60,824 nt of DNA from a bacterium HR15 (lineage in GTDB: Bacteria; Armatimonadota; Fimbriimonadia; Fimbriimonadales; GBS-DC): the NCBI GenBank assembly GCA_002898555.1, contig BEHR01000022.1, positions 1 to 60,824 of the forward strand, read 5' to 3'. A model generated the notes under the pieces. That model had not been told where the DNA came from and ran no database searches. It saw nothing but the letters and a program-made list of their open reading frames with translations. Position 1 is the first letter of the stretch; every line of letters starts with the position of its first letter. The position numbers were made by a program, and so were the translations under genes. This document shows positions 3,608-12,544 of the stretch, piece after piece.

Positions 3608-5386
3608 ATGGAGCAACAATCCTTGCGTTTTCTAAATCAGTGGGGCATGACTCTTCTAACCGTCTGGTTATGCCTGATTTCAATACTAATAACAGGTTAT
3701 AAGGATATAATAGGGGCTAATCACCCTCTGCAATTGGTGTTGGTACAGAAGATTCTACATCCTGAACTTTACCCCAATGATCAGTTTGTCCAAGAAACCG
3801 CTTATGCTTATGCCTCCTTCCTATGGTATTTGGTGGCATTGCTCTCGCGGTGGGTTGACCTTTCGGTGGTGCTTGGCGTTCTGTTCGTTGTTTCACGGCT
3901 ACTGTTTCTTATAGCGGCGTTCCAGATAGGGCGAGCGTTTTTTGCGAGTTCGCATGCGGCGCCATTAGCAGCAATGGCATTTATCGCATCCAGTCCTTCC
4001 CCGTTGGTCGGAGCAGGTAATCCTATCCGCGACTTTACAGAGCAAACAAGTTTTGCGGTCGCTTTTGTGTTGTTGGGATTGGCCGCTCTTATGCAGAGAC
4101 GCCCCGTGCTGACCGCGTCGTTTCTCGGATTGGCAATGGACATGAATATGATGTATGCTCTTTTTGGAATGGTGTACCTTGCGGTTTCTTGGGTGGTCAC
4201 TCCTGAATGTCGGAAAGAGGCACGAAGGTGGCTGATATCGCTGCCTGTGGTTGTTCTGGTAGGCGCCCCCGGCATCTGGCTGACCCTACAAAGTAGTGCG
4301 CACTCCAGTTTCGATGTGCAAGCGGTTTGGCAAGTTGCCGAATTACAGTTCCCATACCACTTCTTCCCTACACTTTGGCACCCTCTGCTGCAAGTGGCAC
4401 TACTTGGGCTAATGGGGCTGAGCGGGTATTTGGCGCGCGTGCTGCCGTTTAGCACGACCGCAGCAAGGACTTATCTCCCGCTGTGGGCAGTCATCGGCTT
4501 TTTCTGGTACTTGCTGGCATGGCTGACCCCTTATGTATTTCATTCACTCTCTCTATTGCGCCTTCATCCTATTCGCGGACATGACCTCTGGATGTTTACC
4601 GCAGGTGTCTTCTTTGCGGGTGCCGCTGCGACATGGATCGATCAACGCCCTGCCACTTCGTGGTGGCTTTTTGCTGTTCAGGTCGGCATGCTAACAGTGG
4701 CTATTGTATGGCGACGCTTCGATATCCTGAAAATCGACTCAATAACTCTGTTAATCCTTGCTTTTCTTCTCAGTGGGATACTGGGAGCTGGTCTTCGCGC
4801 GTTATGGTCAAAAAGCTACTCCCAACAGTTCACACACGCCACAAATGCGTGGCTGGCACTACTGGTGGGCATTGCTTTCCTGTCAGGGCGTGCGATCATT
4901 GCCCATGCACAGCGCGTTACTACAGCAGGTAACTGGTTAGGAATCCAGGCACCGCCATGCTTACCCTTTGCAGAGTGGGCACGCAAGAACACCCAATTAG
5001 ATGATGTGTTCCTTATCCCATTCGGTCCTCAGGAGGGATGGCAAGACTTTCGCCACCTTTCCCAGCGCAATGTGTTTGTGCACTGGAAAGATGGAACGGC
5101 TTGGCCGTATGCGCCCTGGTATGCCACACACTGGCTACAACGCATGCGCCTGCTGGGCTTGATGGAGGTCGCCCATCTCGATGAGCACCACTATCGCACA
5201 GGACGATGGACCCATGTCCGAGAAACCTATGCAGATCATGTCTACATAAAGACTATTGATGAAACACGCATACTTCAATTGGTGACACAGTTCCGAATCG
5301 ATTACTGGATCGCTTACAAGCAAACCCGTACTAACCTGCCCGTAGTGTACCAGCATGGCGAATGGAAGATTATCAAGGTAAAATAG
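3608..5386 (+). CDS. Polytopic membrane protein, 592 aa, function unknown
   Basis: About ten hydrophobic segments span residues ~12-420 (first segment MTLLTVWLCLISILITG), followed by a soluble ~150-residue C-terminal domain with many W, H and Y residues (for example WARKNTQLDDVFLIPFG). The layout resembles large polytopic envelope proteins such as GT-C glycosyltransferase-like proteins, and the tail resembles a domain I associate with DUF6798, but I cannot confirm either. The start at 3608 has GGAGG about 10 nt upstream; the gyrA stop lies within that leader, so the two genes are probably co-transcribed. The DNA is visibly richer in A and T than gyrA (for example 3671-3725), hinting at a different origin. 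Which face of the membrane the tail occupies is not visible. Confidence 0.7.
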   Translation: MEQQSLRFLNQWGMTLLTVWLCLISILITGYKDIIGANHPLQLVLVQKILHPELYPNDQFVQETAYAYASFLWYLVALLSRWVDLSVVLGVLFVVSRLLFLIAAFQIGRAFFASSHAAPLAAMAFIASSPSPLVGAGNPIRDFTEQTSFAVAFVLLGLAALMQRRPVLTASFLGLAMDMNMMYALFGMVYLAVSWVVTPECRKEARRWLISLPVVVLVGAPGIWLTLQSSAHSSFDVQAVWQVAELQFPYHFFPTLWHPLLQVALLGLMGLSGYLARVLPFSTTAARTYLPLWAVIGFFWYLLAWLTPYVFHSLSLLRLHPIRGHDLWMFTAGVFFAGAAATWIDQRPATSWWLFAVQVGMLTVAIVWRRFDILKIDSITLLILAFLLSGILGAGLRALWSKSYSQQFTHATNAWLALLVGIAFLSGRAIIAHAQRVTTAGNWLGIQAPPCLPFAEWARKNTQLDDVFLIPFGPQEGWQDFRHLSQRNVFVHWKDGTAWPYAPWYATHWLQRMRLLGLMEVAHLDEHHYRTGRWTHVRETYADHVYIKTIDETRILQLVTQFRIDYWIAYKQTRTNLPVVYQHGEWKIIKVK

Positions 5387-5465
5387 TATCACCTCCCAAA
5401 AAGACGGGAAGGGGTTGACCTATTTGTATGTCGCATGTCCTTCAACAGGCGGAGGTTATCCAGAA

Positions 5466-5963
5466 ATGCCTGTCAGATTTCGCAGACAGCATACGACAAT
5501 CACGGTCAGCCCCAACAACCCTCTCCCTGTCTCCGTTGCGAACAGCGAGAACCAGCCCGTGCCGACGGAAGAGAGCCGTATCGACCTTCTGCTCACGGGC
5601 GAAGTCACTTGCGACGGAACCGCCAAAGACCTGTTAGGCGTCACAGCCACAGAAGCAGCGACCATCCAGAACGCCAGACCCTACCGAAGATTCATCCTCA
5701 TGTTCTGGAACCCAGGCGGCGTCACGCCCCAATTCACCCTGTTAGGTCGCCCCACCGATATCGATGGCAACCCGCTCTTTACCAGCTGGTTCAACTACGG
5801 CACTTTCACTGCCTCAGGCAGCACCGCAGGCTGGTATCGCATCGTGCTTCAGACCTCAGACGGCACGCCCCTCGGAGCCGATATGTACCGCATCGAGGTG
5901 ACGGATTCAGCAACCCCGCCAGGCTCCGCCACGCTCATCTTCAACCTCAAGGGGGAACGGTAA
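5466..5963 (+). CDS. Hypothetical protein, beta-rich, 165 aa
   Basis: Not recognised. The sequence is rich in Thr, Ser, Pro and Gly with alternating hydrophobic strands (RFILMFWNPGG, GWYRIVLQTSDGT, ATLIFNLKG), suggesting a small beta-sandwich. There is no signal peptide. I chose ATG 5466 because GGAGG lies about 10 nt upstream; a GTG-type start at 5415 is possible but adds an unconvincing tail. The stop abuts the next start at 5964, so the two genes look like an operon. It lies between the membrane protein and the CRISPR-truncated gene. Confidence 0.55.
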   Translation: MPVRFRRQHTTITVSPNNPLPVSVANSENQPVPTEESRIDLLLTGEVTCDGTAKDLLGVTATEAATIQNARPYRRFILMFWNPGGVTPQFTLLGRPTDIDGNPLFTSWFNYGTFTASGSTAGWYRIVLQTSDGTPLGADMYRIEVTDSATPPGSATLIFNLKGER

Positions 5964-6938
5964 ATGCCAAGGATCTTGCTGCTGACACCGAACCGACGCG
6001 ACCTGTTCCACGCGCCCAAGCGCGCCTTAGAAACGCTCGGCATCGAGGTCGTCACAGGTCAAATAGACAGCAGCTTCTCCACCACGATCTGGACCGATGG
6101 ACTGGTTGTCCCCAGCGCCAATGTACGCGCATTCCTGCGAAATTTCAATGCCGTCTTCGTGCTGGAACGGCAAGCCATCTCCAGTTCAGACAACAGTACC
6201 CGACACGCCTTAGAAACTTGGATTAATTGGAACGCGGATGAAGATACGCCTGTGGTGTTGTTCGGTCCGAACCTCAGCACGGCACGCACCGCGCTCACGC
6301 TGCCCAGCGATTTCCCGATTGTCCGCCCGGACCCTAACGATTTGGCGAACACCGTCTCGCAAGTGGATAGCAACACTTTCGCCTCCACAGGCAGCGTTCC
6401 GAACGGCGGCACCAGCTACCCCCGCTTGGGCGCACGGGTACGGCTCACACGAGAGAACCTCCGCGTCTATACCCCGACCTACTGCGCCTTCAACAGCACC
6501 AATGCCTACTTCTGGCGTTTAGATGAGATAAAGCACCTTCTCTTAGGCACAAATGGCGAGATTCTTGCCGTGCCCGATTTCCCTGACCAGAGCTTCCCGC
6601 CCGATACCCTCATCGCCTACCGCTACTACAAGCATTTCATCTTGCCTGGCATTGAGGTGCAGACGGAGCGCATGCATCCGCTTAGGCACTCACAACTTGG
6701 CACTTTGTCTATCTTCTGGCTGCTCTATGCGCTGAAGTTGGTCGGCATCCAGCCCGCTCGCCAAGCGATACTCTGCTTTGAGATAGACCATCCGATAATT
6801 ACCCGTCCCGACCGAACCGATTTGACCGCAGCGCAGCAGCAGCTCGTTATCTTGCGTGAGACCTACCGCTGGCTCATCGGGTTTCAATCCCCTGCGCAGG
6901 GGCTGTCCCTTTGGACCATTCTGCCACGACCGCCTTGA
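5964..6938 (+). pseudogene. Hypothetical gene truncated at its 3' end by a CRISPR array
   Basis: About 305 codons look native; codon 306 onward is CRISPR repeat and spacer, and the frame then stops inside the first spacer at 6938. The N-terminus (MPRILLLTPNRRDL) suggests a flavodoxin-like alpha/beta start. A later stretch (AILCFEIDHPI, ~265-280) recalls the first strand of polysaccharide deacetylase-like barrels, after which a catalytic domain would normally continue. That domain is missing, so I call it a truncated gene rather than a complete protein. The ATG follows the upstream TAA without a gap. I do not claim a specific function. The array either formed next to the gene with deletion of its 3' end, or arrived by rearrangement. 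Confidence 0.6.
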
Positions 6939-7214
6939 GTACGCCGCCGCCGTTATGTTTCAATCCCCTGCGCAGGGGCTGTCCCTTTGGACCATTCTGC
7001 CACGACCGCCTTGAGTACGCCGCCGCCGTTATGTTTCAATCCCCTGCGCAGGGGCTGTCCCTTTGGACAAACTGAGACCAGATACTGATAACACTGCCGA
7101 CCACTCCGTTTCAATCCCCTGCGCAGGGGCTGTCCCTTTGGACAGAAGATAGCGGGGTGGCTGAAGGGCCGGAGAAAAGTTTCAATCCCCTGCGCAGGGG
7201 CTGTCCCTTTGGAC
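6881..7214 (-). CRISPR. CRISPR array, five 36-bp repeats, four spacers
   Basis: Five identical repeats lie at 6881-6916, 6957-6992, 7033-7068, 7108-7143 and 7179-7214. On the plus strand each begins GTTTCAATCCCCTGCGCAGG, so in transcript orientation (minus) each ends GGGGATTGAAAC, the common 3' handle. The core CCCCTGCGCAGGGG is a perfect palindrome. Spacers are 40, 40, 39 and 35 bp; the two at 6917-6956 and 6993-7032 are identical, meaning one 76-bp repeat-spacer unit was duplicated at the leader-distal end. The handle fits type I or type III systems. No cas gene is in the window, so it is either an orphan array or is served in trans. Confidence 0.97.
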
Positions 7215-7225
7215 CCTGCGCCCCT

Positions 7226-7255
7226 ATTATACCCCATTGCGAACTCAAAATGCAA
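7226..7255 (-). promoter_or_regulatory. Promoter of the CRISPR array
   Basis: On the minus strand TTGCAT (7255-7250) is separated by 18 nt from TATAAT (7231-7226), which ends 11 nt before the first repeat. Transcription would begin only about 4-6 nt before that repeat, so the transcribed leader is nearly absent. The stretch 7215-7358 between the two CRISPR loci holds this promoter and otherwise nothing I recognise; it may serve as leader for both divergent arrays. Confidence 0.7.
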
Positions 7256-7358
7256 GTCCCGATTCAGAACCTCCCCTCGATCGGGCTTAATTTGACTCGT
7301 GGGCCAGGGGGGTTGCGAATCGAGATTTGAGTATGTTATTAGGAGAGATCAACCCACC

Positions 7359-7454
7359 GTTTTTCGCCTCCCTGTGAGGGATTGAAATGGCTTCAGCGTT
7401 TCCGCGAGCTCTTTCCTGGCAGCAGCTTTTCGCCTACCTGTGAAGAAGTGAAAC
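7359..7454 (+). CRISPR. Relic CRISPR, two degenerate 30-bp repeats, one spacer
   Basis: GTTTTTCGCCTCCCTGTGAG plus GGATTGAAAT (7359-7388) and GCTTTTCGCCTACCTGTGAA plus GAAGTGAAAC (7425-7454) match at about three quarters of positions and flank a 36-bp spacer (7389-7424). The 30-nt length and form (GTTTTT at the start, TTGAAAC-like end) resemble widespread 30-bp type I-B-like repeats. The orientation is plus, divergent from the 36-bp array 144 bp away. Repeat decay and the single spacer indicate a dying or minimal array. From 7455 to 7575 only a fragment resembling the CCCTCACCCCCAGCCCCT element (7477-7497, reversed) is seen. Confidence 0.7.
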
Positions 7455-7575
7455 TCAGGAAACCTGTTCGGAAAGGGGCTGGGGGTGAGGGCAAATCAGG
7501 AGGACGGGGCTGCCCACCGAGCCGAAAATGGCTTAGACCATCGGGAACGAGGAATGCGCCACTACTTCCTGCTCC

Positions 7576-9486
7576 CTATTCCCTAAAGCCATTCTTTGGC
7601 AGGGTTGGTTTCCAATCCTGCAGAGGCATCGGGAGACCGTTCTTGCCCGGGGCTTGAAGCCCGCTTTGACGAATAAACATACGCGCCTGCTTGGGGTAGA
7701 GCTTAATTCGCGTGCCTGCTGGATAAGTCTGCTGAGTTACCCATTCGTAGTAGGTATCGTCTAACACCCATGTAAACACCGCCCCATCTTTCCAATAAGG
7801 GCGGGTGATGCCGGTTGGGTTGACCAGTACAAATCCATTCTCAAAGGGTCGGTAGTAAAGTCCGCCTCGATAGTCAGAGGAGCGGAAGAAAACTTGATAA
7901 GGGCCTGTCGGCTGACCCAGTGGTACATCAAGATCGGCATCAGGACGCCAGGAACGCTGGCGACCAAAAGGTGTGCCCTCGTAATAGTGCTTATCTAAAT
8001 AGAGGTAGGCATTTTCATTGCTGCCGAGTAGGAAGCTTGCCATCGCGTACAATTTCATAGGACGTCCTTTCACAGGATCTATTGTATAGCCGCTATAGTA
8101 AATGCGCACTTTATCAGGTGTTTCGGCAAGCGTTTGTAGCTGGGCTTCCCAAGTGGTAAACGAAATATAATCGGCAGGGGCTGGAAGGCTGTAAATGGTC
8201 GTGAACGCCTGCTCGATAAAAACGCCGTCTAAGTATCCTTGCCTTAGTAGGTAGGTATGCATCCAGTCGCGGGTATACGGCTTAGAAGCGACATTGGCTA
8301 ATAACAAGGGTGGTCCATACAGTGATAGCTCGCGACGCAGGGTAAGAAAGTACTTCACCACAGCTGCCAGGCGGCTGGCGACGGTTGGGTAACGCTGGTT
8401 AGGGTGGGTGTGTGTAAAGTCAATTAGATTATCTAATTTGATTGAGAAAAGACCCATGTTTGAGTGGCGGAAGCGTTCCCGGATTCGAGATGCTGCTCGA
8501 TCCGCGCAGTCAGGATTGCCAACATCCATCATGTAAAGCGAACCGCCGAAGCGAACTCGTTGACCAAATTGGTTCAGAAGAAACCATTCAGGATGATATT
8601 GATTGCAGTAAGTATATCCGAATGGGTCACGTATGGAGTTCCCATCGCCTGCGGCATCGCTGGTAAAGCCCAAGTAATAGGTCGTGGTTTTTAGTTCTGG
8701 TTTATAGACGAGCATACGGCGTGCTTCGTACATGCGCTGGGAAATACCAATCATATCGAACTCGCGTGCATAGTAGATCCAGTCGTTATTTGCTTCCTCA
8801 CGGGTGGGATCATAGTAAGTAAATATTTTAAGAGAACGGGGTGGGCGAGTACGCCACTGTTTACTGCCATAAACCTCGAGATTATCAAGCCAGAGCGTCC
8901 CTTCCGAAGCGCCCGCTTGCAAGGTTAGCTCGAAAGCGAGCCGAATGCCTGCAGGATTTGAGTTTGGCACTACATAATTTGCTTCAAAGCGTGACCAATT
9001 CGGGATAGGGGTTGAGGATGAGATGAGATTGCTGTAAGCAGTTTGGTCATCCAGCCCGCGCGCCCGCACACGCAGGAGGGCGTTGCTCCAGTTGCCAGTC
9101 TTAGCCCAGAAGCTGATGCGTATGGTCTCGCCTGCGCGGGGATAATCCTCCGAGGGAAAATAGAGATCGATAAAGAGAGTACCTACTACACTCCCGGTGC
9201 CTGTGCGCGAGAAGCTTATGCGTTGGCTGGCAACGCCGCTTGCCTTCTCGATGTAGTCGATGGCAAAGGTGAAAAACTGGGCAGCATCTGAAGGGCTATA
9301 GCTGATGTAAAATCCATCCGCTATCCCTTCACCATAAGTCATTCCATCTTCACCGAGCCCCGGCGGAATCTCATCATGCTCAAATTCGCCAATGCCCGCC
9401 GCGTAGTTAATCAGCGGCGGCTCCTGAGCAAATGCTACAACCCAGAGCAACAAAGCGATCCATCCGAATACCCATACGCGCGTCAT
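7576..9486 (-). CDS. Secreted glycoside hydrolase-like protein (GHL15-type barrel, uncertain)
   Basis: The 636-aa product has a signal peptide (hydrophobic WVFGWIALLLWVVAFA, residues ~5-21), then a ~190-residue carbohydrate-binding-like beta-sandwich ending LWLDNLEVYG, then a ~350-residue domain consistent with a TIM barrel (LKIFTYYDPT, GLFSIKLDNLIDF, YLDGVFIEQAF) and a small C-terminal beta domain. The order and motifs resemble hypothetical glycosyl hydrolase family 15-like proteins (GHL15); Asp and Glu in IKLDN and FIEQ are candidate catalytic residues. It probably acts on polysaccharide outside the cell. The start at 9486 has AGGAGAG upstream and leaves a shorter, better signal peptide than 9504. 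It is an isolated transcription unit, divergent from rodA. Confidence 0.6.
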   Translation of the reverse strand: MTRVWVFGWIALLLWVVAFAQEPPLINYAAGIGEFEHDEIPPGLGEDGMTYGEGIADGFYISYSPSDAAQFFTFAIDYIEKASGVASQRISFSRTGTGSVVGTLFIDLYFPSEDYPRAGETIRISFWAKTGNWSNALLRVRARGLDDQTAYSNLISSSTPIPNWSRFEANYVVPNSNPAGIRLAFELTLQAGASEGTLWLDNLEVYGSKQWRTRPPRSLKIFTYYDPTREEANNDWIYYAREFDMIGISQRMYEARRMLVYKPELKTTTYYLGFTSDAAGDGNSIRDPFGYTYCNQYHPEWFLLNQFGQRVRFGGSLYMMDVGNPDCADRAASRIRERFRHSNMGLFSIKLDNLIDFTHTHPNQRYPTVASRLAAVVKYFLTLRRELSLYGPPLLLANVASKPYTRDWMHTYLLRQGYLDGVFIEQAFTTIYSLPAPADYISFTTWEAQLQTLAETPDKVRIYYSGYTIDPVKGRPMKLYAMASFLLGSNENAYLYLDKHYYEGTPFGRQRSWRPDADLDVPLGQPTGPYQVFFRSSDYRGGLYYRPFENGFVLVNPTGITRPYWKDGAVFTWVLDDTYYEWVTQQTYPAGTRIKLYPKQARMFIRQSGLQAPGKNGLPMPLQDWKPTLPKNGFRE

Positions 9487-9573
9487 ACCGGCTCTCCTCT
9501 CCATCGGCTCTATTATAGCATATTCGAACGCTTAGACGCAATCCCCCCGTGCAAAACCATTAGAGTTGCGGGG

Positions 9574-11519: not shown

Positions 11520-12544
11520 AGTATTCAATCGGTGGTTGTGTTTTACTTGGGCTGATAGCGGCGCTCGGACTCAGTGCCTGTCGCTCCGGCGAGCAAGCCA
11601 TAGCAAAGGTCAACGATACCCCGTTGCCCCGCGAGGAGTATTACCGACGCCTCGAAATCGTGCCGACCCCTATCCAAATCGGTCCCAATCAAGCGACAAC
11701 AGCGCCTGCTGGCTACACCACGCTGGTACAGATGATCCGCGAGCAAGTATTGCTTCAGATGGCGCGTGAAAAGGGCGTGATGCCCACGGATAAGCAGGTC
11801 GATGAACGCGTCGAACGCGAGATGAAAAACAACCCCCAGATCAAGCAAGCCATCACGGAGCAGAAAGTGATGACGCTGGACGACTTTCGTCGACAAGTGC
11901 GAGTCGCCCTGGCACAGTTTAACTTGCTGACACGCGGCGTCACCGTCACGGAACAGGAGGTAAAACAGTTCTACGAGCAGAACAAGCAAGCGTTCTATCT
12001 TCCCAAACGGGTGCAGGTGCGCTTCGTCTTGGTACAGAACCCTGAGATTCGCAAGCAAATCGACGACGACCTCAAGCGCGGTTTCAGCTTCCAGAGCATC
12101 GTGCAGAAGTACTCGCAGAACCCTGCAGCGGGTATTCAGGCAGGCGAGACTACGATTGCCATCGAGGGGCCTCCCAGCGCCCGCACACCAGAACAGCAAG
12201 CACAGGAGATGCAGCTGCGCAAGGTGTTGCAAAATGCCAAGGTGGGGCAGGTGACGAACTGGATACCGCTTGGCAATGTCGCCGCGCGCGTGGAGGTCAT
12301 CACCGCCATGTCGGGACGCCAGCAGACCTTCGAAGAGGTCAAAGATTCCATCCGCGAGGGGCTAATGCTGCAGAAAGGGCGCGAGAAAAACAAAGACATC
12401 AATGCCGAGTTGGCACGCGCGGTGCTCAACGCCAAAGTCGAGATCCTCAGCCCACAGTGGAAGGAACGCTACCAGAAAGACATGGAGCAGCTGCGCAAAG
12501 CGCTGGAGGAATACGACAAGCAACAGAAGCAGGCAAGCCGGTAA
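11516..12544 (+). CDS. Lipoprotein peptidyl-prolyl isomerase/foldase (SurA-PrsA-like, PpiC type)
   Basis: The 342-aa product starts with a lipoprotein signal (GGCVLLGLIAALGLSAC, lipidated Cys ~22), followed by a SurA_N-like chaperone domain opening AIAKVNDTPLPREEYYRR and extending to ~145, a parvulin-like section (~150-270: KRVQVRFVLVQ, GFSFQSIVQKYSQNPA) and a charged helical tail. Classic parvulin active-site features are weak, so it may be mainly a chaperone. It would assist folding of exported or outer-membrane proteins in the periplasm. The ATG overlaps the previous stop by 4 nt and a ribosome site (GGAGGA) lies inside the upstream gene, so translation is coupled to the SwrB-like gene. 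Confidence 0.8.
   Translation: MKYSIGGCVLLGLIAALGLSACRSGEQAIAKVNDTPLPREEYYRRLEIVPTPIQIGPNQATTAPAGYTTLVQMIREQVLLQMAREKGVMPTDKQVDERVEREMKNNPQIKQAITEQKVMTLDDFRRQVRVALAQFNLLTRGVTVTEQEVKQFYEQNKQAFYLPKRVQVRFVLVQNPEIRKQIDDDLKRGFSFQSIVQKYSQNPAAGIQAGETTIAIEGPPSARTPEQQAQEMQLRKVLQNAKVGQVTNWIPLGNVAARVEVITAMSGRQQTFEEVKDSIREGLMLQKGREKNKDINAELARAVLNAKVEILSPQWKERYQKDMEQLRKALEEYDKQQKQASR

What the first reader, a model, noticed from the sequence alone, without database searches (positions are those of the whole stretch)
6881..7454. Two divergent CRISPR loci of different repeat families sharing a 144-bp spacer
A 36-bp, palindrome-containing array (minus) and a relic 30-bp repeat pair with a 36-bp spacer (plus) lie back to back. 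The repeats are unrelated, so two distinct Cas systems once used this spot. No cas gene lies in the window. This could be a CRISPR island served in trans, or a hotspot where arrays are inserted or lost.
Basis: partly seen in the sequence, partly recalled or inferred. Interest (0 to 1): 0.65.

Follow-up and report, generated by a model that had tools for sequence, protein, structure and literature searches.

The report
Outlying CRISPR array beside array relic
A small bacterial immune-memory array, apparently fed from elsewhere in the genome by a reverse-transcriptase CRISPR enzyme, sits in a broken gene next to the worn-down remains of a second, different CRISPR array; it is a real but largely ordinary case of arrays scattered away from their enzymes.

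Summary
At 6881-7214 (minus) there are five identical 36-bp repeats with three distinct spacers, the last duplicated. At 7359-7454 (plus) there is a decayed 30-bp repeat, a 36-bp spacer and a second decayed repeat. The 144 bp between them is not shared: about 108 bp (7215-7322) is the leader of the 36-bp array, 99% identical at two other loci of this genome and 78% in another genus. The 30-bp pair has no recognisable leader.

Both repeat families belong to systems present elsewhere in this genome. The 36-bp repeat and leader match an array beside a Cas6-RT-Cas1 fusion and Cas2 (contig C35, continuing on C25), so the window array is most likely an outlying array served in trans. The 30-bp pair is a decayed minimal array of the type I-B family (four long arrays, several mini-arrays). 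The 36-bp array ends inside a gene that is about 700 aa in relatives and cut to 307 codons here. The other half was not found in the assembly.

RT-Cas1 modules working in trans are already described (PMC5513706). This is a new member of a known kind. No protospacers were found. Whether the array was copied in or left behind by deletion is unresolved.

The parts
6881..7214 (-). 36-bp CRISPR array: 5 identical repeats GTCCAAAGGGACAGCCCCTGCGCAGGGGATTGAAAC, 4 spacers (3 distinct; 6917-6956 = 6993-7032)
7215..7322 (-). Leader of the 36-bp array (homology traceable to 7329), ending in GGGGTATAATAGGGGCGCAGG next to the first repeat
   Evidence: 99% identical at C35:353-496 and C3:75733-75876, 78% at G004:C14:187537 (these matches include the first repeat); 97.4% over 115 bp; alignment
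7323..7358 (.). Unassigned stretch before the 30-bp repeat; not similar to the type I-B leader (6 of 44 positions ungapped, below chance level)
7359..7388 (+). Decayed 30-bp type I-B family repeat, copy 1 (3 mismatches from consensus)
   Evidence: Rfam CRISPR-DR2 28.4 bits, below gathering
7389..7424 (+). 36-nt spacer of the relic pair
7425..7454 (+). Decayed 30-bp repeat, copy 2 (5 mismatches)
5964..6884 (+). N-terminal half (307 codons) of gene X, about 700 aa in relatives; the reading frame runs into the terminal 36-bp repeat and the conserved Phe codon TTT overlaps the repeat end GTTTC
7579..9504 (-). GHL15-like gene whose homologue lies about 40 bp from full-length gene X in relative G004 (same convergent order)

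Best explanation
The 36-bp array is an outlying, leader-bearing array of the genome's reverse-transcriptase CRISPR module (Cas6-RT-Cas1 plus Cas2 on C35). Shown: same repeat, same leader and different spacers at three loci (C35/C25 being read as one array split between contigs), with the integrase genes beside only one of them; the leader ends at the first repeat as in the parent. Inferred: Cas6-RT-Cas1/Cas2 recognises the leader-repeat junction at 7214/7215 in trans and adds spacers there; the array is transcribed leftwards from the leader, the Cas6 domain cuts the repeat RNA below the CCCCU-GCGC-AGGGG hairpin to give crRNAs with an AUUGAAAC tag, and the type III-A and/or III-D effectors encoded on C15 and C12 use them. 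The 30-bp pair is a dead one-spacer array of the type I-B family, left without leader and with mutated repeats. The array reached or survived at this place through a rearrangement that cut gene X after codon 306-307 and removed its second half.
For: Repeat identity in the genome; leader identity at C3 and C35 and 78% in another genus; the C35 gene is Cas6 (PF10040, E 8e-9) + RT (PF00078, with YGDD) + Cas1 (PF01867) and matches solved Cas6-RT-Cas1 7KFT; Cas2 (PF09827) lies between it and the leader; no other copy of the fusion in the genome. Repeat RNA folds as two small hairpins, -13.4 kcal/mol, z -1.8. Type I-B genes (Cas6, Cas8b, Cas7b, Cas5, Cas3, Cas1) lie just before the long 30-bp array on C12; Cas10/Csx10 on C12 and Cas10a/Csm3/Csm4 on C15. 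30-bp family: C7, C12, C15, C16 long arrays with leader. Gene X is full length next to the same neighbour in G004. Silas et al. 2017 (PMC5513706): about half of RT-cas loci lack effector genes and the module is proposed to act in trans.
Against: No expression or adaptation data. The effector used is a guess: no effector gene was recognised beside any 36-bp array. No protospacer found. The promoter scan found no sigma-70 site in the leader by its rule, although TATAAT is present. The assembly breaks in the same repeat on C25/C35, so an assembly error at the gene X junction is not fully excluded.
Confidence: 0.78

Rival explanations
1. A complete Cas6-RT-Cas1-cas2-array locus once stood here and its cas genes were deleted in place, leaving leader and array; nothing was copied in. 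(This shares the trans-service part of the best explanation and differs only in origin.)
For: Orphan arrays with a cas2 3' tail in front of the leader exist at C3 (18 codons, 83% identity) and in G004 (24 codons, 79%), and G004 has no Cas6-RT-Cas1 left: such decay, or partial copying, does happen.
Against: The window leader copy lacks any cas2 tail and to its right come the 30-bp relic and a host gene; three complete loci in one genome would be needed (window, C3, C35).
Confidence: 0.3
2. The array came with a phage or prophage (virus-borne mini-CRISPR array) and the phage-cluster-like genes 5382-6938 are its remains.
For: In G004 gene X lies beside Mu-like gpT capsid and head genes; virus-borne mini-arrays are known in Sulfolobales viruses (PMC6858448).
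Against: The array interrupts gene X instead of lying beside it; G004 has the same gene pair without an array; the window genes themselves hit no phage family; the array carries several spacers and a full host leader.
Confidence: 0.07
3. Assembly artefact: identical leader/repeat stretches were used to join gene X to the wrong DNA.
For: C25 and C35 end within the same repeat and share a spacer, as expected of a short-read break.
Against: The window leader differs from the C3 and C35 copies at its own positions; its spacers are unique; the missing half of gene X was found on no contig (with a control hit in G004).
Confidence: 0.07
4. The 30-bp pair is a dispersed repeat, not CRISPR.
For: The pair is decayed and lacks a leader.
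Against: 27/29 match to a repeat that forms arrays of 20, 48, 33 and 31 units; spacer length 36 equals the family's.
Confidence: 0.02

Closest known systems
Cas6-RT-Cas1 (RT-linked, type III associated) CRISPR adaptation modules
   Same: Fusion architecture, Cas2 neighbour, array beside it, no effector genes at that locus, spacers without detectable targets (Silas 2017, PMC5513706; structure 7KFT)
   Different: Here the same leader-array also occurs at two further sites without cas genes, one of them inside a broken gene
Type I-B CRISPR arrays of the same genome (C7, C12, C15, C16)
   Same: Repeat family and spacer length of the 30-bp pair
   Different: Two mutated repeats, one spacer, no leader
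Orphan/isolated CRISPR arrays
   Same: Arrays far from cas genes with a matching system elsewhere in the genome
   Different: Two families lie back to back
Virus-borne mini-CRISPR arrays (PMC6858448)
   Same: Small arrays with host-type repeats
   Different: Not shown to be in a virus; host-type leader; interrupts a gene of a phage-like cluster

Membership tests
Array of the Cas6-RT-Cas1 module | Repeat identical to the array adjacent to cas6-RT-cas1 | tested here: met
Array of the Cas6-RT-Cas1 module | Same leader at the repeat junction | tested here: met
Array of the Cas6-RT-Cas1 module | cas genes adjacent to the array | tested here: not met
   No cas gene found in the window. Adjacency is usual but not required of an array; 'served in trans' remains an inference about function
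Array of the Cas6-RT-Cas1 module | Spacer uptake and crRNA production at this array | not testable with these tools
   Needs RNA and adaptation data
Type I-B array (30-bp pair) | Repeat sequence of the resident I-B family | tested here: met
   3 and 5 mismatches
Type I-B array (30-bp pair) | Family leader upstream | tested here: not met
   6/44 identity, no blastn match to any I-B leader: filed as a relic, not as a working array
Type I-B array (30-bp pair) | Spacer of family length (mostly 34-39) | tested here: met
   36 nt
Virus-borne mini-CRISPR array | Located in a viral genome or prophage | tested here: inconclusive
   Gene X belongs to a phage-like cluster in G004 but hits no phage family itself, and the array cuts it

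The most novel reading that the evidence does not exclude
Leader-array cassettes of both systems spread in this genome as small mobile units through the integrase chemistry of Cas1-Cas2 itself, and the I-B integrase also makes off-target insertions: on C3 a 31-bp piece of the 36-bp family's leader is duplicated around a 34-bp unique insert with a 65-bp period, the I-B repeat-spacer period.
Probability: 0.1. Interest if true: 0.6.

Novelty: new member of a known kind. Interest (0 to 1): 0.3.

Why it matters
It is a clear natural example of one RT-Cas1 integrase with a conserved leader at three separate sites in the same genome, so leader recognition in trans could be tested directly. It also shows arrays lying at broken-gene junctions, which bears on how orphan arrays arise. 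Neither point overturns what is known.

Tried and rejected
Shared-leader idea for both arrays: rejected, since the right-hand 36 bp does not resemble the I-B leader. Dispersed-repeat idea: rejected. Search for the lost half of gene X in the assembly: nothing. Protospacers: nothing credible in phage records (best E = 9; all 15 spacers in one concatenated query), in viral contigs by exact cores of the four window spacers, or for the duplicated spacer in own and 30 related genomes. Synteny of the G004 orphan array with the own-genome array loci: no match. The organism's name could not be obtained. Literature searches for rearrangements at CRISPR arrays returned nothing to the point.

Full report
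What is there. Five exact copies of GTCCAAAGGGACAGCCCCTGCGCAGGGGATTGAAAC lie on the minus strand at 6881-7214, with spacers of 35, 39, 40 and 40 nt counted from the leader; the last two are identical. On the plus strand, 7359-7388 and 7425-7454 are decayed copies of a 30-bp repeat around a 36-nt spacer. Nothing else in the window comes closer than 10 mismatches to the 30-bp consensus, and three shuffled windows give at best 11. Rfam recognises both only weakly, below its gathering scores.

The two families in the genome. The window is contig C22 of a 72-contig, 3.04-Mb assembly. The 36-bp repeat occurs 19 times, all exact: the window (5), C3 (3), C25 (6) and C35 (5). C35 and C25 share a spacer at their array ends, so they are probably one array of about ten repeats split by the assembly (inference). 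The 30-bp family has 144 matches, mainly in arrays on C7 (20 repeats), C12 (48), C15 (33) and C16 (31) that share a leader, plus mini-arrays on C19 (2 repeats) and C53 (3), and decayed or leaderless copies on C12 (31926-32037), C15 (about 59.8-60.0 kb) and in the window.

The 144-bp gap. Positions 7215-7322 are the leader of the 36-bp array: 99% identical in front of the C3 and C35 arrays and 78% in G004, another genus of the same family (first repeat included). Its repeat-proximal end GGGGTATAATAGGGGCGCAGG has a TATAAT box, though the promoter scan did not call a promoter. The remaining 36 bp shows no match to any I-B leader (6 of 44 ungapped positions). The two loci therefore do not share a leader.

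Who could serve the arrays. Beside the C35 array lies one open frame of 897 aa with Cas6, reverse transcriptase and Cas1 domains, matching the solved Cas6-RT-Cas1 (7KFT, E 2e-70); the aligned RT motif reads YGDD. A Cas2 follows, then the leader and the array. No other copy of the fusion is in the genome. The I-B genes Cas6, Cas8b, Cas7b, Cas5, Cas3 and Cas1 stand just before the long C12 array; type III genes (Cas10 with Csx10 on C12; Cas10a, Csm3 and Csm4 on C15) are present. No cas gene was found in the window: the Cas1 profile rings only on C12 and C35, fourteen Cas proteins of this genome do not match the window, and eight ORFs near the array match no PADLOC family. Only those eight ORFs were scanned with PADLOC. 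Because both repeat families end in GGGATTGAAAC, their crRNAs would carry the same 5' tag, which would let a type III complex use either; this is inference.

The junction with gene X. The reading frame 5964-6938 is homologous over 307 codons to proteins of about 670-760 aa in relatives. In G004 the full-length homologue (705 aa) stands about 40 bp from the homologue of window gene 7579-9504, in the same convergent order, and next to Mu-like head genes. In the window the frame runs into the terminal 36-bp repeat at 6881; a Phe conserved in the homologues is encoded by TTT inside the repeat end GTTTC, a possible microhomology, although one codon is weak evidence. The second half of gene X was not found in the assembly with a query from G001; the same query does hit G004. 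A similar junction exists on C12, where two exact 30-bp repeats abut a LutB-like iron-sulfur gene lacking its N-terminal part (the LutB name rests on reading the translation).

How it most likely works. Shown: leader, repeats and different spacers at three loci, one set of integrase genes. Inferred: integrase acting in trans, transcription from the leader, Cas6 cutting, type III use. The 30-bp pair is a dead remnant. Whether the 36-bp array was copied here or is what remains of a larger locus is open. C3 and G004 orphan arrays keep the 3' end of cas2 in front of the leader, which fits either partial copying or decay of a full locus; G004 has no fusion gene. The window copy keeps no cas2.

Spacers. 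None of 15 spacers (the three distinct 36-bp-array spacers and the relic spacer of the window, and those of C3, C25 and C35), searched as one concatenated query, has a credible match in phage records. Exact 22-24-mers of the four window spacers are absent from viral contigs, and the duplicated spacer is absent outside the array in 31 genomes. Exact-core searches miss mutated targets, so this is weak negative evidence; it agrees with the report that RT-linked spacers can rarely be traced (PMC5513706).

Verdict. Observation confirmed, interpretation partly supported, new member of a known kind, interest 0.3. The least ordinary thread is outside the window: the C3 leader duplication listed under noticed items.

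Noticed in passing
L039 (C3) 11649-11744: A 31-bp stretch of the 36-bp family's leader is directly duplicated (one mismatch) around a 34-bp unique insert, period 65 bp; this resembles an off-target spacer insertion of the size made by the I-B system. A chance tandem duplication is not excluded.
   Followed up: partly
L043 9926-10037 (C12:31926-32037): Two exact 30-bp repeats around a 52-nt 'spacer' that begins with a partial repeat, abutting a LutB-like gene without its N-terminal part.
   Followed up: partly
L106 9446-9820 (G004:C14): Relative of another genus with a cas2 3' tail, the homologous leader and a three-repeat array but no Cas6-RT-Cas1 found in its genome.
   Followed up: partly
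L117 7936-12819 (G004:C19): Gene X lies in a cluster with a Mu-like major head protein, a structural protein and a head protease; gene X homologues occur in several relatives. Possible prophage remnant or domesticated particle genes.
   Followed up: no
L147 3842-3935 (C19) and L148 2740-2901 (C53): Mini-arrays of the I-B family with a variant leader carrying an inserted palindrome GGGGCGAATNATTATTCGCCC; the C53 one lies just behind what looks like the end of argS (gene name from reading the translation only).
   Followed up: no
window 7470-7512: Stretch similar to short sequences at many places in this and related genomes, a dispersed intergenic repeat.
   Followed up: no
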